A DNA stretch of 64,000 bases from Gammaproteobacteria bacterium (lineage in GTDB: Bacteria; Pseudomonadota; Gammaproteobacteria; Burkholderiales; Rhodocyclaceae), in the NCBI GenBank assembly GCA_018824085.1, contig JAHJHI010000051.1:1-64000 (forward strand). Reading direction: 5' to 3'. The notes beneath the pieces are model-generated. The model saw only the letters and a list, made by a program, of their open reading frames with translations, was not told where the DNA came from and did no database searches. Positions 9,913 to 20,014 of this stretch are shown here, piece by piece; the first letter of the stretch is position 1; every line of letters starts with the position of its first letter. The position numbers were made by a program, and so were the translations under genes.

Positions 9913-11310
9913 ATGAACCAAGTTGTCCGTACGCGCTTTGCGCCCAGTCCCACCGGCTATCTGCATATCGGCGGCGCCCGCACCGCGCTGTTCTCGTGGG
10001 CCTACGCGCGTCGTCATGGCGGGCAGTTCGTCCTGCGTATCGAAGACACGGATGTCGCACGGTCCACGCCAGAGGCGGTTGAAGCGATTCTGGACGGCAT
10101 GAAGTGGCTGGATCTGGAGCACGACGAAGGGCCGTTCTACCAGATGCAGCGCATGGAGCGTTACAAGGCCGCCATCGCCCGCATGATCGCCGAGGGCCAC
10201 GCCTACCACTGCTATACGACGCAGGATGAGCTCGATGTGTTGCGCGAATCGCAGCGCGCGGCGAACCAGAAGCCGCGCTATGACGGCCGCTGGCGCCCGG
10301 CGCCCGGCAAGGTATTGCCTGCGCCGCCGGCAGGGGTGCCGCCGGTCGTGCGGTTCTGCAACCCGCTGGATGGCGTCGTCGCCTGGGACGATCAGGTCAA
10401 GGGGCGCATCGCGATCGCGAACGAGGAACTGGACGATCTGATCATCGCTCGCGCGGACGGCACGCCAACCTACAACTTCTGCGTCTGTGTCGATGACTGG
10501 GACATGGGCATCACGCATGTCATCCGCGGCGACGACCATGTGAACAACACGCCGCGCCAGATCAACATCCTGCGCGCGCTCGGCGCAACCGTTCCGCAGT
10601 ACGCCCACTTGTCGATGATTCTCGGTGACGACGGACAGAAGCTGTCGAAGCGCCATGGCGCCGTCAGCGTCATGCAGTATGACGAGGACGGCTATCTCGC
10701 CGAGGCGGTGATCAACTATCTCGCGCGTCTGGGCTGGAGCCACGGCGACGAGGAAGTCTTCTCGCGCGAACAGTTCGTGCAGTGGTTTGACCTCGACCAC
10801 ATCACGCCGTCTGCGGCGCAGTTCAACACCGAAAAATTGCGCTGGCTGAACGCGCATTACATGAAGCTGGCGGACAACGCGCGGCTCGGTTCCGACATTG
10901 CAAGCCGCCTCGCCCGTCGCGGCGTTGACCCGGAAAGCGGTCCGGCGCTGGAGCCGCTGATCGCGCTGTACAAGGAACGCGCTGCGACGCTGGTCGAACT
11001 GACTGACGCACTGGAAGCCTTCTATATCGATCTGCACATTGCACCGCAGATGCTGGCCCAGCACCTGAACGATTCGGCGCGCGGCGCGTTGCGCGCGCTG
11101 GCTGGACGCCTGGAAACGTGTGATTGGAACAAGACGGCGCTCGCGCAGGCGATCAAGGAAACGTGTGCCGAATGCGGGTTGAAGATGCCGCAGGTTGCGA
11201 TTCCGTTGCGTGTCGCGCTGATCGGCCAGCCGCAGACGCCGTCGATCGACGCGGTACTCGAAGCATTCGGCAGGGAGCGCGTGCTGGCGCGTCTCGCACG
11301 GGTGGTCTGA
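9913..11310 (+). CDS. gltX: Glutamyl-tRNA synthetase
   Basis: The 465-residue class I aminoacyl-tRNA synthetase charges tRNA-Glu with glutamate in the cytoplasm. The HIGH motif is HIGG at residues 18-21, within [19 protein letters not shown]. The KMSKS motif is KLSKR at 243-247. Between them lie RIEDTD and [14 protein letters not shown]. The C-terminal anticodon-binding region contains [20 protein letters not shown]-like sequence. The length is normal. It is transcribed away from the reverse-strand tRNA-Val. Confidence 0.97.
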
Positions 11311-11498: not shown

Positions 11499-12491
11499 AT
11501 GAACCGCATCTTCATCAGCTACCGCAGTGCTGACGGCGCCAAGGACGCCAGCCGCCTGGCCGATGATCTGGGCCGCGTCTTCGGTGCCGACCGCGTGTTC
11601 CTCGACCGCGAAGACCTGCGCGGCGGCAGCAGCTGGCGCGAGCAGATCGCGCTGACGATGGATCATCGCCCGGTCGTCCTGTTGCTCATGACGCCCGGGT
11701 TTTTTGCCGCGCGGCATGAGAACGGCGACCTGCGCATCAATGACGCCGACGACCCGGTGCGCGGCGAGATACTGTCCGCGATGGAGGCGGGTGCGGCGGT
11801 GCTGCCATTGCGCGTGGATGGCACGCCGATGCCGGCGGCAGGCAGTCTGCCCGCCGCCTTGCGCGATCTCTCCGAAATCCATGCACTGCCGCTGCGTACC
11901 GACGAGTGGAGTGCGGTGGATCTGCCCCGCATCATTGCCGACATCGAGCGCCTCGGCGTGTCGCGCGCGCCGGGCACGGTGCCGCTCGCACGCGAAGTGG
12001 GCGCACGGGTGACGCGCCGGAACGGCCGCATGCTGTCCCTTGCCATCGTGCTCGCACTGGTGTTCGCCGCCGTCATGCTGATGCGTCCGCATGCACCGGA
12101 CCCGTCGCGGCCGGTTTCCCTCGACGGAAAATGGGTGCTCACGCTGAAGGGCGACCGACACGCCTCCGTCCATGTCCGCCAGCGCGATGATCGCCTCGAA
12201 TTGCGTTCCGATCCGGTTCGCGTCGATGACGATCCGGACTGGCAGCCGTACATCGAAACGCTGGCCGGCATGAACGTGCCGCCGCTTACTCATGTCCGCT
12301 ATACCGCCGAAGGCGAGCTTTTTGGCGAGGAGGCCGATCTGGCACTCACCATCTTCAGCGCCGACGCGGGGTTCAAGGTCAATACAGGCAATCTGCATCT
12401 GCGCGTCGGGCCCGACGGCGCAGGGTGGACGGGCGAAATTTCGCTGAACAGCGGCGAGCAGCAAGCGGTGTCGCTGATACGCAGCCGGTAG
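11499..12491 (+). CDS. Membrane-anchored TIR-domain protein with C-terminal extracytoplasmic domain
   Basis: Residues 1-155 form a bacterial TIR domain: FISYRSADGAKDASRLADDL, VFLDREDLRGGSSWREQI and VVLLLMTPGFF. The DDPVRGEI segment places Glu90 where NADase-type TIR domains carry the catalytic glutamate. One membrane helix follows at about 178-195 (MLSLAIVLALVFAAVMLM), preceded by basic residues, so the TIR domain should be cytoplasmic. Residues 205-330 (LDGKWVLTLKGDRHASVHVRQ) look beta-rich, perhaps lipocalin-like, and would lie outside the membrane. The ATG has no strong ribosome-binding site. Whether it cleaves NAD or only signals is not visible. It starts a three-gene unit. Confidence 0.85.
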   Translation: MNRIFISYRSADGAKDASRLADDLGRVFGADRVFLDREDLRGGSSWREQIALTMDHRPVVLLLMTPGFFAARHENGDLRINDADDPVRGEILSAMEAGAAVLPLRVDGTPMPAAGSLPAALRDLSEIHALPLRTDEWSAVDLPRIIADIERLGVSRAPGTVPLAREVGARVTRRNGRMLSLAIVLALVFAAVMLMRPHAPDPSRPVSLDGKWVLTLKGDRHASVHVRQRDDRLELRSDPVRVDDDPDWQPYIETLAGMNVPPLTHVRYTAEGELFGEEADLALTIFSADAGFKVNTGNLHLRVGPDGAGWTGEISLNSGEQQAVSLIRSR

Positions 12492-12512
12492 ACGGCGCAA
12501 AGGAGGAGGCTC

Positions 12513-15500
12513 ATGACAACAAGAAACCTGCGCATCCGCGGGCGTGTTCAGGAGAGCACGCTGACGGCGGATACCGGCGGCGCGGTTGCGGTACTGAACA
12601 GCCGGCGCCTGGTGCCCGGGCGGGCGCGTGACGGTGTGACGGGCGACATCGACGTGGCAGCCGATGAAGTGGTGCGCATCGAACTCGACAACGGTTTCGT
12701 GCTGTGGAGCCGTGCAGACGACCTGGTGCGCGAACACGGTCAGCAGGCGGTGTCGCGCGACGGCGCCGCCAGCTGGGAACTGGACGCGTTGCATGCGCGC
12801 GGTGCGCAGGCCGCGTCGCGCGACGAGCGCGGCCTGCTTGGCCTGGGCATCAAGGTGCTGGATTTTTTCGGCGTCGACCTCAAGAAAAAGTCCGCGGTTG
12901 CGCTCGGCAAATGGTTCGAGAACAAATGTCTCGGCGGACGGGCGCCGGCGCTTTACCGCTGTTCGCTCGGTGATTTCGGGCTGGGCGCGCTCGCAGCCCG
13001 CGAAGTCCTGCCGGCGACCGGGCCGCTGCTGGTGTTCCTGCATGGCACGGGTTCAAGCTGCCGGGGCAGCTTCGGCGCCCTGTGGGATGCGGCCAACCGT
13101 GAAGGGGGGGCGCTGCGGCGGCGGCTGCGCGAACTCTATGGCGACCGGGCGTTTGCGCTGGAGCATCGCAGCCTGACCGAAAGCCCGATCAGCAACGCGC
13201 TCGCGCTGGCCAGGCGCTTGCCCGCTGGCGCTGAACTTCATCTGGTCAGCCATTCGCGCGGCGGCATGGTGGGTGAACTCATGTGCCTGGGCGAATGCGA
13301 AGGACTGGACGCCGTGAGCGGCCAGCTCGACGAGTTGTTCGCGGCCGACCGCACGCTGGCCGAACAGCTCGGTCTCGGCGCGCTCGGCGCGGAAGCCTCG
13401 GCGCTGCGCGACGCCGCCTATCAGGCGGATCGCGACAATCTCGCCGCGCTCATTGCCGAGCTCGCCGCAAAGAAATTCCGCATCACCCGCTTCGTGCGCG
13501 TCGCCTGCCCGGTGCGCGGCACGACGCTGGCGTCCGGCCGGCTCGACCGCTGGTTGTCGGTGCTCGACTTCCTTGCTGGCCAGACCGGTTTCCCGCTGTT
13601 CGGCGACGGCGTCGATTTCCTGCTTGCCGTGGTCAAGGAGCGCACCGACCCGCGCACGCTGCCCGGCGCCGAGGCGATGATGCCCGGTTCGGCGTTGACC
13701 CGCCTGCTCAATCACCCCTCGCTGGAAACGCGTGCCGACCTGACGGTGATCGCCGGCGATGTGGAGGGCGAGTCCCTGTGGCAGAAGATCAAGCTGCTGG
13801 CGACCGACTGGTTCTATGGAGCCGACCATGACCTGGTCGTCAACACCGGCTCGATGACAGGCGGCCTGCGGCGGAGCGGGCAGGGCGGGCGCTTTCGGCT
13901 TGACGCAGGCGCCGACGTCAACCACTTCCGTTACTTCACCAACGCGCGCAGCGTGCGCTGGCTTGCGGCGGGGCTCACGCGCAGCGCGGGCGACGAGAGC
14001 GGTTTCCTGCCGATCGCTGCGGCGCCGCAGGACGCACCGCAGCGCAGTCGCGCCACGGCACGCAGCCAGGCGCTGGCGGAGCCGCGGCCGCTGGCCCTTG
14101 TGCTGCCGGGCACGATGGGCAGCGAGCTGAGCGTTGGCGGCGCTCCGGTCTGGCTCGACTACCGCGCCCTGTTCAAGGGCGGGCTGAAGCGGCTGCACAT
14201 GTCGGCCGACGCCGTCTTGCCGGGTGGTCTGGTCGACGACTTCTACGGCCCGCTGCTCGACTTTCTCGCGCGCACCCATCGCGTGGAGTACTTCGCCTAC
14301 GACTGGCGGCTTTCCGTGTGCGACGCCGCAGCACGTCTTGCCGAACGGCTGGAGGCGTTGCTGCCGCTGGCCGAGGCGCAGCAGCAGGCGGTGCACATCG
14401 TGGCGCACTCGATGGGCGGGCTCGTCGTGCGGGCGATGATGGCGGACGGCGGGCGCGGCGCCGACGCATGGGCGCGCATCACGCGCCTGCCGGGCAGTCG
14501 GCTCCTGATGCTTGGCACGCCCAACGCCGGTTCCCATGAAGCGGTGCGCTGGCTGACCGGCCACAACCCGACGCAGGCGCGGCTGGCGCTGCTCGACTTC
14601 ACGCAGGACACGGCCGACATCGTCGATCTGGTGCGCACCTATCCCGGCCTGCTCGAATTGCTGCCGTTCTCGGCCGACGCCCCCGACTTTGCCGACGCCG
14701 CTCGCTGGCAACAGTTGCGCGACGCACTGGGCGCGCGCTGGCGCACGGCCGATGCCGGCACACTGAAGGCGGTACGCACCACCTGGAACCTGCTTGAAGC
14801 CGCGCCCGTCGACGCGCGTTTCGTGCGCTACGTGGCCGGCTGCCAGCCGGCGACCGTCATCGACTACCAGATCGCGGACGAGGACGATCCGTGGCCGCTC
14901 GGCCGCAGGCGCATCGATTTCGTCGCCACCGCACGCGGTGACGGCACCGTCTCCTGGGCGTCCGGTGCGCTGCCCGGCGTGCCGATGTGGTACGTGGAAG
15001 ACACCGCGCACGACGCGCTGTGCGCGCAGAGACGTGCGTTCGACGCCTATCTCGAACTGCTGCAGACCGGCAGCACGACGCGTCTGCCCGATACCCCGCC
15101 GCGACGTGCCCGCGCCGGGGCCGAAGAGCGCGAGCGCTTCCTGCTCGCGCCGGCGCCGCCGGCCGACGGCATTCCAGCGCCGGCTGATCTGGCGACCTTC
15201 AGCTTTGGCGGCGCATCACCGCCGGCCGACAGCACACAGCTCCGGCGTCCGCCGATCACCGTGCGCATCCGCCATAGCGAGCTCGCCTACGCGCGCCACC
15301 CGGTCATGCTCGGCCATTACCGCGGCGACACCATCGTCAGCGCCGAAGCCAGCATGGACCGGCGCATGGACGGTGCCCTGCAGCACAGCCTGCAGCTCGG
15401 CCGCTATCCAGGCCCGCTCGGCACGCACGGGCTGTTCATCCCGCGCGTCATGGACCAGCACCCGCAAGGGGCCATCGTCATCGGGCTAGGTGAAGTGGGC

Positions 15501-17966
15501 GAGCTCAGCCCCGGCGGGCTGCAGGAAGGCGTGCGCAGTGCCTTGCTCGATCTCGCGCTGCGGGTGGCCGAATGGCCGGACGAGCGTTTCGGGCCGCACG
15601 AAACCGTGCGCACCATCCGCGTCTCCAGCCTGCTCATCGGAACCGGCGCGGGCGGCATCCGTACCAGAGATTCCGTCGAATCCATCTTGCGCGGCGCGGC
15701 TGACGCACAACGCGCGCTGGCCGAAGGCGCGCTGGCCAGGCGTGTCGTCATCGCCGAAGTCGAGTTCATAGAGCTGTTCGAGGACATCGCCATCCAGGCG
15801 GCAGGCGCGTTGCGCGACGTCGTCGACGGCGCGCTGACCGGCGAGTTCTCGTGGCCTGAACAGGTGCTGGGCGACGGCAATGGCGGGCGTCGCCGGGTGT
15901 GCTTTTCCGAGGACGCGAGCTGGTGGCAGCGGCTGGAGATCAGCCACGACGCACGCCGCGACGAGTTGCGCTTCATCGCGCTCACCGACCGCGCCCGCGC
16001 GGAAATCAGCCTGGTCGGTGGCCAGTTGCAGCAGGTCGATGCCTTCGTGAGCCAGGCCTGCCGCTCCAGTGCGGCGGACGCGGCCACGTCGCGCACCCTG
16101 TTCGAAATGCTGCTGCCACAGCGGCTCAAGCAGCTCGCGCCGGACCAGCGCAGCGTCGTATTGCTGGTCGATGAAGTGTCGGCGCGCTTTCCGTGGGAGC
16201 TGCTGGAGGACCGCTGGCACGCCGGTCAGCGTCCGCCGGCGGTGGCGGCCGGCATGCTGCGCCAGCTTCGCACCGCGCAATACCGTGAGCGCCCGCTCGG
16301 CGCGACGCGCGCCAGCGCGCTGGTCATCGGAGATCCGTCGCCACTCGGTGCGGGCTTCGCGCCGCTGCCCGACGCGGCGGCCGAAGCACGGGCCGTGGCC
16401 CGCGTGCTCGGTGCCGGCAACTACGCCGTGAGCGAACTCATCAACGCGGAAGGCCGCGCCATCATGGCGGCGCTGCACCAGGACGCCTGGCGCATCCTGC
16501 ATCTGGCGGGCCACGGCGTGCACGAATACGAGGTCGCAACGTCCTCGCTGTCGCCCGAAGGTGCCACCACACGCAAGGTGTCGGGCATGGTCATCGGCGA
16601 CGGCTGGTTCCTGACGCCGGGCGACGTCGAGCAGATGCGCTTCGTGCCTGAACTGGTATTCATCAACTGCTGCCATCTCGGGCGCACCGGTGCGCAGTCC
16701 GGCGACGATGCCCCGCTGAGCCGGCTCGCCGCCAACCTCGCGATGCAATTCATCCGCATGGGGGTACGCGCCGTCGTCGCGGCCGGCTGGGCGGTGGATG
16801 ACGCCGCCGCGCGCTGTTTCGCGGAAAGCCTCTACGGTTCGCTGCTCGATGGCCGGGGCTTTGGCGACGCGGTGCGCATCGCGCGCGAGGCGACCTGGTC
16901 GCGCTTCCCGAACGTGAATACCTGGGGTGCCTACCAGTGTTACGGCGACCCGGACTACCGGCTCGACCCGTCCGCGCCGACGCATCGCGAATCGGTACCG
17001 GTGCCGTTCAGCGCGCCATCGGAACTGGTGGCGGCGATCAACAACCGCAGCAGCGCGCTGAAGATCAGCGCCGACGAGGCCTCCGATGCGTCGCCGTCGG
17101 CCTGGCTGGAATCCCTCGTCAGCCGGATCCCGCCGCGCGTGCGCGACACGTGGATGCAGCGTGCCGACGTGGCCGCCGCCATCGGTCTGTGCTTCGGCGA
17201 GGCGCGTGCGTTTGCGCTGGCCGTCGAGTGGCTGGATCGGGCGCGCGCCGCGCGGGACGGTGACTGCCCGATGCGGGTGATCGAACAGTCCGCCAATTTC
17301 CGCGTGCGCGCATCGGACGAAGCCTGGCGCCGGGCGCGCCTGGCGCGCGACAGCGACGCGGCGCGTGCGCTGATCGACGCCATTCGCGAATCCGTGCTCG
17401 AGGTCGGGCGGCTCAAACCCACGGCAGAACGCTGCGCGCTGCTGGGCAGCGCATACAAGCGCCTGGCCTGGATGCTGGACGGCGACGAGCGTTCGGCCGC
17501 GCTGGAAGATGCTTCGCGCCAGTACGCCTGCGCGCTGAAACTTGCAGCCGACGCCGATGAGGCGGACGGCAGCGCGCGCTATGCCTTCATCAACCTGTGG
17601 TTGCTGCGTCTTGCCGTGGTCCGCATGGATCGCGCCCGCCGCGGCGGGCTGCCGGCCGACTGGGCGGACACGGTACGCAGCGGCTGCGAGCGCGCGAGGC
17701 TGGAAGCCGCCGCGCACGCGCGGCCCGACTTCTGGAGCACGGCCGCGCTGGGCGACTGTGAGCTACTGCTGGCACTGCTGGGCGGACGAATGAATGCCGC
17801 CGACCAGGCACGGGTGACCGAGGCCTACCAGGCCGCGTTCGCGCGCGGCGGCAGCGCGCGCGAGCACGCGTCGGTGATCGACAACCTGGATTTCCTGATT
17901 GATCTGGGGGTTCTGCGCGGCGCGCTCGGCAAGGTGCGCAGCGCGCTCATGACAGGGGAGGCGTGA
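12513..17966 (+). CDS. Giant multidomain protein: two alpha/beta hydrolases, CHAT caspase-like protease, helical tail
   Basis: The protein has 1817 residues. After about 150 N-terminal residues, a first hydrolase has FLHGTGSS (175-182) and HSRGG with a nucleophile-like Ser248. A second, LCAT-like hydrolase spans about 525-850 with PGTMGSEL (532-539), AHSMGG (Ser633), GDGTVSW (Asp810) and TAHDAL (His833), a complete Ser-Asp-His set. Residues 915-1110 recall M17 peptidase N-terminal or macro-like folds (VIGLGEVGELSPGGL). The CHAT protease (about 1200-1480) has FPWELLED, LHLAGHG (His1334) and FINCCHLG (Cys1387), the caspase-like dyad. Residues 1540-1810 look like helical repeats. AAGGAGGAGG precedes the ATG. 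There is no signal peptide. The molecular role is unknown; conflict or cell-death function is inferred. Confidence 0.82.
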   Translation: MTTRNLRIRGRVQESTLTADTGGAVAVLNSRRLVPGRARDGVTGDIDVAADEVVRIELDNGFVLWSRADDLVREHGQQAVSRDGAASWELDALHARGAQAASRDERGLLGLGIKVLDFFGVDLKKKSAVALGKWFENKCLGGRAPALYRCSLGDFGLGALAAREVLPATGPLLVFLHGTGSSCRGSFGALWDAANREGGALRRRLRELYGDRAFALEHRSLTESPISNALALARRLPAGAELHLVSHSRGGMVGELMCLGECEGLDAVSGQLDELFAADRTLAEQLGLGALGAEASALRDAAYQADRDNLAALIAELAAKKFRITRFVRVACPVRGTTLASGRLDRWLSVLDFLAGQTGFPLFGDGVDFLLAVVKERTDPRTLPGAEAMMPGSALTRLLNHPSLETRADLTVIAGDVEGESLWQKIKLLATDWFYGADHDLVVNTGSMTGGLRRSGQGGRFRLDAGADVNHFRYFTNARSVRWLAAGLTRSAGDESGFLPIAAAPQDAPQRSRATARSQALAEPRPLALVLPGTMGSELSVGGAPVWLDYRALFKGGLKRLHMSADAVLPGGLVDDFYGPLLDFLARTHRVEYFAYDWRLSVCDAAARLAERLEALLPLAEAQQQAVHIVAHSMGGLVVRAMMADGGRGADAWARITRLPGSRLLMLGTPNAGSHEAVRWLTGHNPTQARLALLDFTQDTADIVDLVRTYPGLLELLPFSADAPDFADAARWQQLRDALGARWRTADAGTLKAVRTTWNLLEAAPVDARFVRYVAGCQPATVIDYQIADEDDPWPLGRRRIDFVATARGDGTVSWASGALPGVPMWYVEDTAHDALCAQRRAFDAYLELLQTGSTTRLPDTPPRRARAGAEERERFLLAPAPPADGIPAPADLATFSFGGASPPADSTQLRRPPITVRIRHSELAYARHPVMLGHYRGDTIVSAEASMDRRMDGALQHSLQLGRYPGPLGTHGLFIPRVMDQHPQGAIVIGLGEVGELSPGGLQEGVRSALLDLALRVAEWPDERFGPHETVRTIRVSSLLIGTGAGGIRTRDSVESILRGAADAQRALAEGALARRVVIAEVEFIELFEDIAIQAAGALRDVVDGALTGEFSWPEQVLGDGNGGRRRVCFSEDASWWQRLEISHDARRDELRFIALTDRARAEISLVGGQLQQVDAFVSQACRSSAADAATSRTLFEMLLPQRLKQLAPDQRSVVLLVDEVSARFPWELLEDRWHAGQRPPAVAAGMLRQLRTAQYRERPLGATRASALVIGDPSPLGAGFAPLPDAAAEARAVARVLGAGNYAVSELINAEGRAIMAALHQDAWRILHLAGHGVHEYEVATSSLSPEGATTRKVSGMVIGDGWFLTPGDVEQMRFVPELVFINCCHLGRTGAQSGDDAPLSRLAANLAMQFIRMGVRAVVAAGWAVDDAAARCFAESLYGSLLDGRGFGDAVRIAREATWSRFPNVNTWGAYQCYGDPDYRLDPSAPTHRESVPVPFSAPSELVAAINNRSSALKISADEASDASPSAWLESLVSRIPPRVRDTWMQRADVAAAIGLCFGEARAFALAVEWLDRARAARDGDCPMRVIEQSANFRVRASDEAWRRARLARDSDAARALIDAIRESVLEVGRLKPTAERCALLGSAYKRLAWMLDGDERSAALEDASRQYACALKLAADADEADGSARYAFINLWLLRLAVVRMDRARRGGLPADWADTVRSGCERARLEAAAHARPDFWSTAALGDCELLLALLGGRMNAADQARVTEAYQAAFARGGSAREHASVIDNLDFLIDLGVLRGALGKVRSALMTGEA

Positions 17967-19114
17967 CCGTGGGCCGGGGACTGGTGTTCGAGCACGACTA
18001 CATCGTTGGCGGACCGGCGCGCGCGCCGGTCACGCCGAACTTCCGGCTTGCAGAGTACGCATCGGCGTCCGGGCGAGTGCGCGTGCACCGCGAACTTGTC
18101 GCCGCCGTGCAGATGCTGCGCAGCGACCTGGGCCGGCGGGTGTCGATTGACGGCATCACGCCGCGCGGCGGCGTCGGACGCGGCCTGGACGGGCGCTTCG
18201 TATGGGTGAAGGCGGATTCGCCTGCCGACCTCGCGGCCAGTGCGGCGCGCGTGGCGCGCGACGGCTGGCTGGCGCGTGTCGAGTCGCGTGGTGACGCGCT
18301 CTACATCGAAATGCCGGATCCGCAGAACCTGCCGCCACTGCTGGCCGAACGCGCGCTTGATCTGGCAATCGAGGTCACGGCCGCCTTCGAAACCAGCGGC
18401 GACCCGTATCAGCAGGTGACCGGCAACTTCGACGGAGCGGGCCTGTCCTTCGGTCCGTTGCAGGTGAACCTGGGTACCGGCACGCTGCAGGAACTGTGCC
18501 GCCGATACGCGGCGCGCGACGAGGCACGGCTGAGCGAATGTTTCGGTGACCTGTGGCCGCAGTGGCAGGGCATGCTGCGCCTGCGCTCGCGCGCGCAGCA
18601 GGTCCGCTGGGCGGATGCGCTGAGCCGGGGCTCGCGCAAGGCCGGCTTCGATGCCGGCTGGACGGCGGCGCTGCAGCGCGTCGGGCGCGACACGGTTTTC
18701 CGCGCGGAAACCTTGCGCTATGCCTACGACACCTACGGCCGCAAGCTCATCGTCGCGCTGGCCTGGCTCAAGGGCGTGCGACCCGTCATCCTGCGCAACT
18801 TCCGCTGTCTGGCGGCGCTGTACGACCTGTGCGTGCAGCAGGGCAGCCTGGACCGTGCGCACACGGCGATCCGCCGGCGCATCGAACGGGAGGATCCGCG
18901 CGATGAATTCGCATTGACCCGGATCGCCGTCGAGGAACGCGGGCGCGCGGCGAATGCGCAGTGGCGCGCCGACTGCATCAGCCGCCGCCTCTGCATACTG
19001 GAACGCGAGCCCGTCAGGGTGGTCGAGTCCGGCGTGTCGGCGCAGCGCGACAATCCGCAGCTTCACCTGTTGCGCAATGCACCGGTGAAGCAGATGGAGC
19101 GCTATCTGGCCTGA
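17963..19114 (+). CDS. M15-like (degenerate) plus lysozyme-like domain protein
   Basis: The 383-residue product starts at a GTG that overlaps the previous stop (GTGA) behind GGGGAGG, so translation is probably coupled. Residues 20-120 resemble M15-type D-Ala-D-Ala peptidases (FRLAEYASASGRVRVHRELV and VQMLRSDLGRRVSI, ending ALYIEM). The zinc-binding His/Asp pattern is not visible, so this part may be inactive. From about residue 145, the segment NFDGAGLSFGPLQVNLGTGT resembles lysozyme/chitosanase-fold proteins with an SFGxLQ core. No signal peptide or membrane helix is seen. It is the third member of the TIR/CHAT unit. A wall-degrading role is inferred, not shown. Confidence 0.65.
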   Translation: MTVGRGLVFEHDYIVGGPARAPVTPNFRLAEYASASGRVRVHRELVAAVQMLRSDLGRRVSIDGITPRGGVGRGLDGRFVWVKADSPADLAASAARVARDGWLARVESRGDALYIEMPDPQNLPPLLAERALDLAIEVTAAFETSGDPYQQVTGNFDGAGLSFGPLQVNLGTGTLQELCRRYAARDEARLSECFGDLWPQWQGMLRLRSRAQQVRWADALSRGSRKAGFDAGWTAALQRVGRDTVFRAETLRYAYDTYGRKLIVALAWLKGVRPVILRNFRCLAALYDLCVQQGSLDRAHTAIRRRIEREDPRDEFALTRIAVEERGRAANAQWRADCISRRLCILEREPVRVVESGVSAQRDNPQLHLLRNAPVKQMERYLA

Positions 19115-19207: not shown

Positions 19208-20014
19208 TCAGCCGGCCCAGGTCAGGTTGCCATCTTCCAGCCTGACCTTGTCACCGGCGCGCCAGGTGGGTTCGGCGTCCAGCGTGATGGTGCGTCGTTC
19301 GCCCGAATCCATCAGGACGCTGACTTCGTACTGCGTCACGCTGCGCTGGGTCTTCTCGATCTGGTGGCCGGCGAAAGCGCCGCCCGCGATGCCGATCAGC
19401 GTGGCCACTGTGCGGCCGCCGCCCTTGCCGACGTTGTTGCCGAGCAGGCCGCCGACCACGCCGCCGGCCGCCGCGCCAAGACCGCTGGGTCTGCCGGCGG
19501 CCTGTACCGCGCGGACCGACTCGATGACACCGCAGTTGGCGCAGGCCGGGGCCGTGTAACGGTCGACCTCGCCGGGCGACGCATAAGGCTGCGGCGGCGT
19601 GTGCGCGTCGTACTGCGGATAGGCGGGCGTCACGTCTATGCCGGAGTCGTGGGACTGGTCCGCGACACGAAGCGCCCGCGGTGCGGCCGGCGGCGCGGCA
19701 TGTACCGCCTTCGTCACCGGCGCGCTGACGGGCTTCGCCAACGCGGCCTTCTTCTTGACCGGTGCTTCGGGGGCCACGGCGGGCGTGACGACGGGTTCGA
19801 TTGCCGCGACCTGTGCCGGTGGTGCTTCGGAAACCGGCGCCGGTGCCACCGCTGAGGCGACCGCGACCGGAGGTGTTTCGACGGTCGGCTTGCGTTCGAA
19901 CGCGCCGGTCAGTGATGCAATGCCCACCACGCTGAATACCGTGACGGAAATGGCCGCCACCCACAGTGCGGGGTGCAGGGCCGGTGCTGCAGCGGTATGC
20001 GGTGACGTGTCCAT
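19208..20014 (-). CDS. Glycine-zipper envelope protein with N-terminal membrane anchor
   Basis: The 268-residue protein has an N-terminal hydrophobic segment (LWVAAISVTVFSVVGIASL, about residues 17-35), a long Pro/Ala/Val-rich linker, and a glycine zipper (GAAAGGVVGGLLGNNVGKGGG followed by GIAGGAFAGHQIE, about 175-215). A small C-terminal domain (YEVSVLMDSGERRTITLD) resembles the tail of SlyB/Rick-17kDa-like proteins. It probably spans the envelope with the zipper in or near a membrane. GAGG precedes the ATG by ten bases. It is divergent from flhA and convergent with the TIR/CHAT unit. The biological role is unknown. Confidence 0.8.
   Translation of the reverse strand: MDTSPHTAAAPALHPALWVAAISVTVFSVVGIASLTGAFERKPTVETPPVAVASAVAPAPVSEAPPAQVAAIEPVVTPAVAPEAPVKKKAALAKPVSAPVTKAVHAAPPAAPRALRVADQSHDSGIDVTPAYPQYDAHTPPQPYASPGEVDRYTAPACANCGVIESVRAVQAAGRPSGLGAAAGGVVGGLLGNNVGKGGGRTVATLIGIAGGAFAGHQIEKTQRSVTQYEVSVLMDSGERRTITLDAEPTWRAGDKVRLEDGNLTWAG

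What the first reader, a model, noticed from the sequence alone, without database searches (positions are those of the whole stretch)
11499..19114. TIR / CHAT-hydrolase / lysozyme-like three-gene cassette: candidate undescribed conflict or cell-death system
Three genes in one orientation encode a membrane-tethered TIR domain, a giant protein with two lipase-like domains plus a caspase-like CHAT protease, and a protein with M15-like and lysozyme-like parts. Genes 1 and 2 are 21 bases apart; genes 2 and 3 overlap by four. Each domain class is known from prokaryotic defence or programmed-death modules. I do not recall this exact combination as a named system; that is a memory-based judgement. A defence role is inference: TIR could deplete NAD, CHAT could activate a partner by cleavage, hydrolases could attack membrane lipids, and the third protein could attack the wall.
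Basis: partly seen in the sequence, partly recalled or inferred. Interest (0 to 1): 0.85.

Follow-up and report, generated by a model that had tools for sequence, protein, structure and literature searches.

The report
TIR-linked lipase-protease cell-death operon
A bacterial three-gene operon joins an immune-type TIR enzyme to a giant protein carrying two lipase-like domains, a nucleotide-sensor-like domain and a caspase-like protease, plus a cell-wall hydrolase; its parts recur together in other bacteria, so it looks like a real but untested self-destruction or anti-virus system.

Summary
The three genes are real and as placed. Gene 1 is TIR–transmembrane–C-terminal domain. Gene 3 is an M15-like domain without zinc ligands plus a GH46 chitosanase/muramidase-fold domain.

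Proposed active-site residues of gene 2 are kept in 93–96 of 97 giants. The whole trio recurs at the same site in a related MAG (57/76/80% identity); a permuted trio lies in a Desulfuromonadaceae MAG; in three giants of one clade a TIR is fused to the C-terminus. More often the giant has a C14 caspase upstream (39 of 97 loci) and an M15-like gene downstream (29 of 97), so TIR and GH46 are alternative parts.

Best reading: a Thoeris-like abortive-infection/cell-death operon in which a TIR-made NAD derivative switches on a giant membrane-and-protein-attacking effector backed by a wall hydrolase. Function, signal and phage defence are inferred. Against obligate coupling: in one same-genus genome the TIR stands alone at this site, and a full-length gene-3 homologue (L149) has no giant nearby. 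New variant of a known kind.

The parts
11499..12491 (+). Gene 1: TIR protein, 330 aa. TIR domain res 4-128 (11508-11882), TM about res 178-196 (12030-12086), C-terminal domain about res 205-330 (12111-12488)
   Evidence: TIR_2 2e-11; hydropathy peak 2.45 at residue 178; Glu90 invariant in 12 aligned TIR proteins
12513..17966 (+). Gene 2: giant effector, 1817 aa
13029..13937 (+). Alpha/beta hydrolase 1 (DUF7379), res about 173-475; proposed triad S248/D440/H471
   Evidence: Pfam 6e-29; S248 94, D440 95, H471 95 of 97; triad assignment is mine
14088..15032 (+). Alpha/beta hydrolase 2 (LCAT/PGAP1-like), res about 526-840; proposed triad S633/D810/H833
   Evidence: LCAT 6e-6; S633 93, D810 96, H833 96 of 97; triad assignment is mine
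15255..15833 (+). Macrodomain-fold domain, res about 915-1107 (folded stretch was 15168-16061)
   Evidence: Peptidase_M17_N in 34 of 58 aligned members, best 5.8e-7, though not in the window's own stretch; PDB profile hit 3jru 2e-5; model pLDDT 85.5; Foldseek top hit 2dx6 4.5e-6, then named macrodomains among others
16086..16949 (+). CHAT caspase-like protease, res 1192-1479; His1334/Cys1387
   Evidence: Pfam 8e-31; H1334 94, C1387 93 of 97
17211..17606 (+). TPR-S sensor repeats, res 1567-1698
   Evidence: PF20308 1.5e-10, above its cut-off; the only TPR-S match in the genome
17963..19114 (+). Gene 3: M15-like + GH46-like protein; start GTG 17963 or 17969
17963..18334 (+). M15-like domain without the zinc-site motif (res 1-124)
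   Evidence: alignment with M15_3 slot-3 proteins; only His11 and His42 in the domain
18335..19012 (+). GH46 chitosanase/muramidase-fold domain (res 125-350); candidate acids E143, D157
   Evidence: A3 profile to chitosanase 2.4e-4; model pLDDT 89.1; Foldseek GH46 chitosanase 3.9e-5; E143 invariant, D157 at least 90% in 15 rows

Best explanation
A TIR-signalled, multi-hydrolase cell-death (probably anti-phage, abortive-infection) operon. The membrane-anchored TIR senses a trigger, possibly through its C-terminal domain, which the charge pattern around the TM places outside the cytoplasm, and cleaves NAD+ into an ADP-ribose-type signal (or simply depletes NAD+). The macrodomain and/or TPR-S module of the giant binds that signal and releases the CHAT protease and the two alpha/beta hydrolases, which attack proteins and membrane lipids. 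Once the membrane is breached the GH46-type protein, which has no apparent export signal, reaches the wall and lyses the cell, a holin/endolysin-like logic. Shown here: the domains, conserved active residues, gene order, recurrence of the trio, TIR-giant fusion. Inferred: trigger, signal molecule, activation, substrates, lysis, phage defence.
For: Whole trio in L065, 57/76/80% identical with the same junctions. TIR fused C-terminally to the giant in L114, L118 and L121, with TIR_2 and ThsB_TIR above cut-off; these three form one clade, so probably one event. Permuted trio (GH46-like gene, giant, assembly gap, frame with a TIR_2 domain and a second TIR-like stretch) in L110. TIR-like genes in 18 of 352 gene slots within two genes of the giant against 9 of 830 farther out, p 7e-5; the window and four near-identical Methyloversatilis loci are in that count and kinship is not corrected. 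Near-complete conservation of three hydrolytic sites. Macrodomain fold and TPR-S in the same polypeptide. GH46 fold in gene 3; elsewhere the downstream slot holds an M15-like gene, with the H..G.A.D..VH motif in 25 of 26 called pieces, so two unrelated wall-hydrolase types fill one slot. Known precedent: TIR-made cADPR isomers and His-ADPR activate SIR2, TM-macro and caspase-like effectors in Thoeris (passages of PMC12847820).
Against: No functional data. In G669 (same genus) the TIR, 57% identical, stands alone between gltX and flhA with no detectable genes 2 and 3 (best E 0.18); that genome's giant sits elsewhere with another TIR and an M15 gene. The TIR of G676 is not beside its giant either. 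The full-length gene-3 homologue in L149 has no giant in the 20 kb taken; for L150 the contig ends about 200 bases beyond the gene on the side where a giant would lie, so it decides nothing. Of 9 order genomes with a gene-3 match, the other 8 are not among the 20 with a giant. The TIR evidence is from few lineages; more loci have a C14 caspase than a TIR. The flanks are not defence genes. The macrodomain could be a structural LAP-type domain that binds no nucleotide, and the window's own stretch has no Pfam match there.
Confidence: 0.5

Rival explanations
1. The giant and the wall hydrolase form an effector pair that can be switched on by different upstream parts (C14 caspase in many genomes, TIR in some); it is a general stress or developmental self-lysis module, in some genomes tied to contractile injection systems, rather than an anti-phage system.
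For: C14 upstream in 39 of 97 loci, TIR in 7 upstream plus 4 downstream; TIR and C14 near the giant largely exclude each other (16, 35, both 2 of 94; Fisher p 0.026, not corrected for kinship); ten of 101 loci have a CIS sheath and/or Pvc16 gene divergent from the module; Streptomyces CIS are reported to mediate cell death (listing and start of abstract of PMC10066040 and PMC10020575; papers not read).
Against: TIR fusion and the TPR-S/macrodomain content fit an NAD-signal immune theme; the window genome shows no Pvc16 (but the control was silent); the eight sheath loci all fall in one 14-row clade.
Confidence: 0.25
2. Genes 2 and 3 are antibacterial effectors delivered into rival cells by a T6SS or CIS (lipase plus lysozyme, no signal peptide).
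For: Lipases, muramidases and M15 domains are common among injected effectors (recalled); gene 3 resembles the T6SS effector domain 4noo in fold, weakly (0.029); its homologue in L149 lies about 3 kb from a Tle1-like phospholipase gene on the other strand; CIS next to ten relatives.
Against: No VipB T6SS sheath in the window genome (control E. coli rings); Pfam shows no PAAR, VgrG or other delivery domain in the three proteins; immunity genes were not searched for; sensor-type domains and a membrane TIR are hard to explain in a cargo.
Confidence: 0.12
3. TIR is an unrelated neighbour; the giant has a housekeeping role in lipid or envelope turnover.
For: TIR stands apart from a giant in G669 and G676; the locus lies between housekeeping genes.
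Against: TIR-giant fusions; TIR enrichment beside the giant; patchy presence, 20 of 300 order genomes and 16 of 61 family genomes, window included, is unlike a housekeeping gene; CHAT site conserved.
Confidence: 0.08

Closest known systems
Type IV Thoeris (TIR + caspase-like protease)
   Same: TIR enzyme and a caspase-fold protease effector in one operon; proposed TIR-made signal
   Different: Protease is CHAT inside a 1817-aa protein with two hydrolases, a macrodomain and TPR-S; extra wall hydrolase; TIR has a TM and a C-terminal domain. Original paper not held; known from passages of PMC12847820, so the published effector's full architecture was not compared
Type II Thoeris (TIR + TM-macro effector)
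   Same: Macrodomain-fold module in the partner effector
   Different: No TM segment evident in the giant (hydropathy peak 1.7); output is hydrolases/protease
TPR-S systems predicted to read NAD-derived signals (Burroughs and Aravind 2020, recalled; paper not held)
   Same: TPR-S in the effector; neighbours in relatives include other TPR-S proteins, one also matching the ASK1-type MAP3K_TRAF_bd model (L092)
   Different: I cannot check whether this exact architecture was listed there
EACC1-type caspase conflict systems (NCBIfam NF047832)
   Same: The alternative slot-1 C14 caspase (one representative, L071) matches that model weakly (43.8 bits)
   Different: Far below its cut-off of 140
GH46 chitosanases and the VgrG3 muramidase domain (4noo; name recalled)
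   Same: Fold and candidate catalytic Glu/Asp of gene 3's C-terminal part
   Different: No apparent export signal; fused to a degenerate M15-like domain; substrate unknown

Membership tests
Type IV Thoeris | TIR gene and caspase-like protease gene in one operon | tested here: met
   same strand, 21-base gap; CHAT is a caspase-fold family (recalled), not Pfam C14. Operon by spacing only, no transcript data
Type IV Thoeris | Effector homologous to the described type IV caspase-like effector | not tested
   reference sequence not available; NCBIfam gives no hit for gene 2 but I do not know whether it holds a type IV model
Type IV Thoeris | N7-cADPR made by TIR activates the protease; phage protection | not testable with these tools
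   needs biochemistry
Type III Thoeris (ThcB4, NCBIfam NF058526) | TIR protein passes the model's cut-off | tested here: not met
   36.5 bits against cut-off 220, TIR part only
Type II Thoeris | Macrodomain effector | tested here: met
   fold match of a predicted model
Type II Thoeris | Effector with TM segments | tested here: not met
   hydropathy only
TPR-S NAD-signal systems | TPR-S domain linked to an NAD-processing enzyme | tested here: met
   TPR-S above cut-off; TIR adjacent, fused in three relatives; NAD processing by this TIR itself not shown
TPR-S NAD-signal systems | TPR-S binds an NAD-derived ligand | not testable with these tools
   prediction in the literature (recalled), no binding data here
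T6SS/CIS effector | Secretion apparatus in the genome | tested here: inconclusive
   VipB absent with a working control; Pvc16 absent but control silent
M15 peptidase (gene 3) | H..G.A.D and VH metal-site motif | tested here: not met
GH46 (gene 3) | GH46 fold with conserved acidic residues | tested here: met
   but the direct Pfam hit is below cut-off (0.056), GH46 rings in only 2 of 15 aligned members (best 7.1e-4), and the L112 homologue gives no Pfam hit

The most novel reading that the evidence does not exclude
A new Thoeris-like class: one polypeptide carries its own NAD-signal sensor(s) and three executioner enzymes (two lipases and a caspase-like protease), and an unexported wall hydrolase follows through the breached membrane, so that the cell kills itself by an endogenous holin/endolysin programme. 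The modular slots (TIR or C14 in front; M15 or GH46 behind) make a family present across Pseudomonadota, Thermodesulfobacteriota, Nitrospirota and others.
Probability: 0.3. Interest if true: 0.82.

Novelty: new variant of a known kind. Interest (0 to 1): 0.64.

Why it matters
If true it links TIR signalling to lytic self-destruction through a single giant effector, gives a bacterial parallel to caspase-plus-lytic-effector death, and names a widespread family (528 relatives in one capped scan) whose sensor, protease and lipase parts can each be tested. The TIR-giant fusions offer a one-protein test of the signal. The C14/TIR and M15/GH46 alternatives show how such operons may exchange inputs and outputs.

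Tried and rejected
PDB listings for gene 3 at E 0.05-0.41: ricin-type chains, plus one LasA entry; not significant, not pursued. Obligate three-gene unit: rejected, see G669, G676, L149. Prophage or plasmid cargo: gene 3 has no plasmid or phage match (25, 26), gene 2 none in phages (106) and 10 plasmid records, all below 60% identity (27). Foreign composition: GC3 of the three genes (0.80-0.85) lies within that of eight other window genes (0.74-0.86); total GC of genes 2 and 3 (0.70) is slightly above theirs (0.59-0.68), so no firm signal. The promoter scan found nothing. The gene caller missed some genes (for instance C14 in L127, M15 in L028 and L073; gene 3 of L065 is covered by a minus-strand call), so adjacency was recounted by tblastn. 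There three C14 hits were scored downstream; for L074 this is because the called start of the giant overruns the caspase gene, L035 is truly downstream, L082 was not checked. My TIR profile was iterated and may include weak members. CIS link as the main explanation: it concerns ten loci of this sample and not the window. Counts come from a biased sample: the best 80 of 528 relatives, 20 loci from the order and the window; four of 101 loci without a called giant were dropped (97 kept), and the tree has 94 rows because rows with 300 or fewer residues in the two tree segments were left out. In that tree the slot labels rest on the incomplete gene calls.

Full report
OBSERVATION. The three ORFs exist at the stated coordinates on one strand. 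The TIR-giant gap is 21 bases behind a strong Shine-Dalgarno-like stretch. Genes 2 and 3 overlap by GTGA or, if the second GTG at 17969 is the start, are 2 bases apart. Upstream lies gltX (9913-11310); downstream a minus-strand gene (19208-20014) with its own terminator-like hairpin, then flhA and flagellar genes. The names gltX, flhA and flagellar are recalled from the sequences, not from a family search. GC3 of the trio resembles other window genes; GC of genes 2 and 3 is slightly higher.

DOMAINS. Gene 1: TIR_2 (2e-11), one hydrophobic segment at about residue 178, and a C-terminal domain of about 125 aa without a Pfam match. Arginines before the segment suggest the TIR is cytoplasmic and the C-terminal domain is outside (inference). 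Gene 2: DUF7379 alpha/beta hydrolase, a second LCAT/PGAP1-like hydrolase, CHAT and TPR-S by Pfam. The unassigned middle stretch, aligned over 58 sequences, matches Peptidase_M17_N in 34 of 58 members, though not in the window's own copy, and a leucyl aminopeptidase N-part in the PDB at 2e-5. Its AlphaFold2 model (pLDDT 85.5) has as top Foldseek hit TTHA0132 (2dx6, 4.5e-6; a macrodomain protein as I recall it, 'hypothetical' in the listing), followed by named macrodomains, some solved with ADP-ribose, leucyl aminopeptidases and designed hydrolases, among others. Whether it binds a nucleotide is unknown; M17 N-domains are not known to me as ADP-ribose binders. Gene 3: profile and fold comparisons give a GH46 chitosanase fold (also 4noo, a T6SS effector domain, at 0.029), while Pfam alone is weak. 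Its N-terminal part aligns with M15_3-type proteins but lacks their H..G.A.D / VH motif.

ACTIVE SITES. Over 97 giants, window included, S248 94, D440 95, H471 95, S633 93, D810 96, H833 96, H1334 94 and C1387 93 are kept; most exceptions are gaps. The assignment of these residues to triads and dyad is mine, by motif. TIR Glu90 is invariant in 12 aligned TIR proteins; that it is the NADase glutamate is recalled from SARM1-type TIRs.

DISTRIBUTION. The giant occurs in 20 of 300 genomes drawn from the order and 16 of 61 of the family, window included. Those with a named rank are from Pseudomonadota, Thermodesulfobacteriota, Nitrospirota and single others; many are MAGs. Gene-3 matches, window included: 9 of 300 and 5 of 369.

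NEIGHBOURS. In 97 loci with a called giant (89 with at least 1.2 kb upstream, 87 with at least 1.2 kb downstream), within 1.5 kb and on the same strand: C14 caspase upstream in 39 (3 more scored downstream); M15-like downstream in 29 and upstream in none; TIR in 7 upstream and 4 downstream; GH46-like in 3 downstream and 1 upstream. The first, gene-call-based counts were lower for C14 and M15. C14 (4.3e-25) and M15_3 (7.7e-6) identities come from Pfam on one representative each. TIR-like genes: 18 of 352 gene slots within two genes of the giant, 9 of 830 beyond, p 7e-5, kinship not corrected. Other recurrent neighbours: TPR-S/'MPFG' proteins, a Rossmann/SLOG-looking protein (label recalled, no Pfam hit) and a 520-aa membrane protein (no Pfam hit).

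THE TRIO ELSEWHERE. L065 (betaproteobacterial MAG AG20) has TIR 57%, giant 76% and gene 3 80%, at the same gltX-flhA site with the same 21-base junction. L112 has C14, giant and gene 3 (68%). L110 (Desulfuromonadaceae MAG) has a PG-binding+GH46-like gene, the giant, an assembly gap, and a frame with a TIR_2 domain (5.4e-16); whether that frame is a separate gene cannot be told across the gap. In L114, L118 and L121 the giant itself ends in a TIR domain (1.9e-11 to 3.6e-12); the three form one clade, so this is probably one fusion event. In the tree of 94 giants the window and L065 form one clade (100*) and four Methyloversatilis TIR/M15 loci another (100*); L112, with a GH46-type gene, nests with L096 and L028, which have M15 genes, so the third gene has moved or been swapped (FastTree; long branches, modest trust).

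AGAINST TIGHT COUPLING. In G669, assigned to the same genus by the tool, the TIR (57%) stands alone between gltX and flhA; tblastn finds nothing of genes 2 or 3 there (best E 0.18), and the giant lies elsewhere with a second TIR and an M15 gene. G676 has its full-length TIR match (41%) on a different contig from its giant, and no giant was called in the 20 kb around the TIR. The full-length gene-3 homologue L149 (52%) has no giant in the stretch taken; L150 (37%) is too near a contig end to tell. The 8 other order genomes with a gene-3 match have no giant match in what appears to be the same draw. For the TIR's C-terminal domain the order search gave 2 of 300, the window and G049; in both the TIR lies directly beside the giant (for G049/L047).

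MECHANISM. Established in Thoeris: TIRs make cADPR isomers or His-ADPR that switch on SIR2, TM-macro or caspase-like effectors encoded in the same operon (passages of PMC12847820). TPR-S has been predicted to read NAD-derived signals (Burroughs and Aravind 2020, recalled; not held). A related paper, PMC8195603, was seen in passages only and does not contain the term TPR-S. Here a TIR stands next to, or is fused with, a protein that holds both a macrodomain fold and TPR-S, joined to protease and lipase-like domains. The simplest reading is signal, then sensor, then several executioners, followed by a wall hydrolase lacking an apparent export signal (hydropathy) that needs the membrane breached first. 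That two different wall-hydrolase types fill the downstream slot supports a wall target. Nothing here shows the signal, the order of events or phage protection.

KNOWN OR NOT. PADLOC gives only partial matches (ThsB 2.8e-6 best for the TIR, SAVED_CHAT 3.2e-5 for the CHAT part). NCBIfam gives no family for genes 2 and 3, and a sub-threshold ThcB4 match for gene 1. Ten paper searches in an open-access library listed no paper that I could recognise from title and abstract start as describing this combination; two key papers are not held, so prior description is not excluded.

VERDICT. A real, conserved modular gene group, a TIR/NAD-signal relative with an unusual multi-enzyme output: new variant of a known kind.

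Noticed in passing
L029, L071, L072, L081, L082, L101, L139, L142 (sheath); L105, L124 (Pvc16): A contractile injection system gene or cluster (sheath, gp19 tube, CIS_tube, GPD hub, PAAR, Pvc16_N by Pfam in representatives) lies divergently upstream of the giant's module in ten loci; in L072 only a 91-aa sheath piece was called.
   Followed up: partly
L204 (G669:C1:140000-159900): Same-genus genome carries a TIR-giant-M15-SLOG-like module at a second site, matching the arrangement in Methyloversatilis loci L086/L093/L099/L103; suggests the window's genus is Methyloversatilis or close (inference).
   Followed up: partly
L233 (NZ_CP066312.1 29822-50078): A plasmid-borne giant in Azotobacter chroococcum lies beside restriction-modification, Fic and recombinase genes (annotation).
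   Followed up: no
L234, L235: In two Paracoccus plasmids the giant directly follows a 1081-1094 aa protein (4-base overlap in L235); one has a weak SBP_bac_3 match, the other none. Possibly another slot-1 part.
   Followed up: partly
L063, L062, L149: GH46-like genes without a giant lie beside or near patatin, papain-like or Tle1-like lipase genes: a recurring lipase/protease plus wall-hydrolase theme.
   Followed up: partly
L138:6038-7288: Another giant-adjacent TIR also has a hydrophobic segment and a C-terminal part with an L-x-G-x-W-like start, resembling the window TIR's layout by eye.
   Followed up: no
G000:C56:2795-4840: A second, 47% identical FlhA in the window's genome: two flagellar or related export systems.
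   Followed up: no
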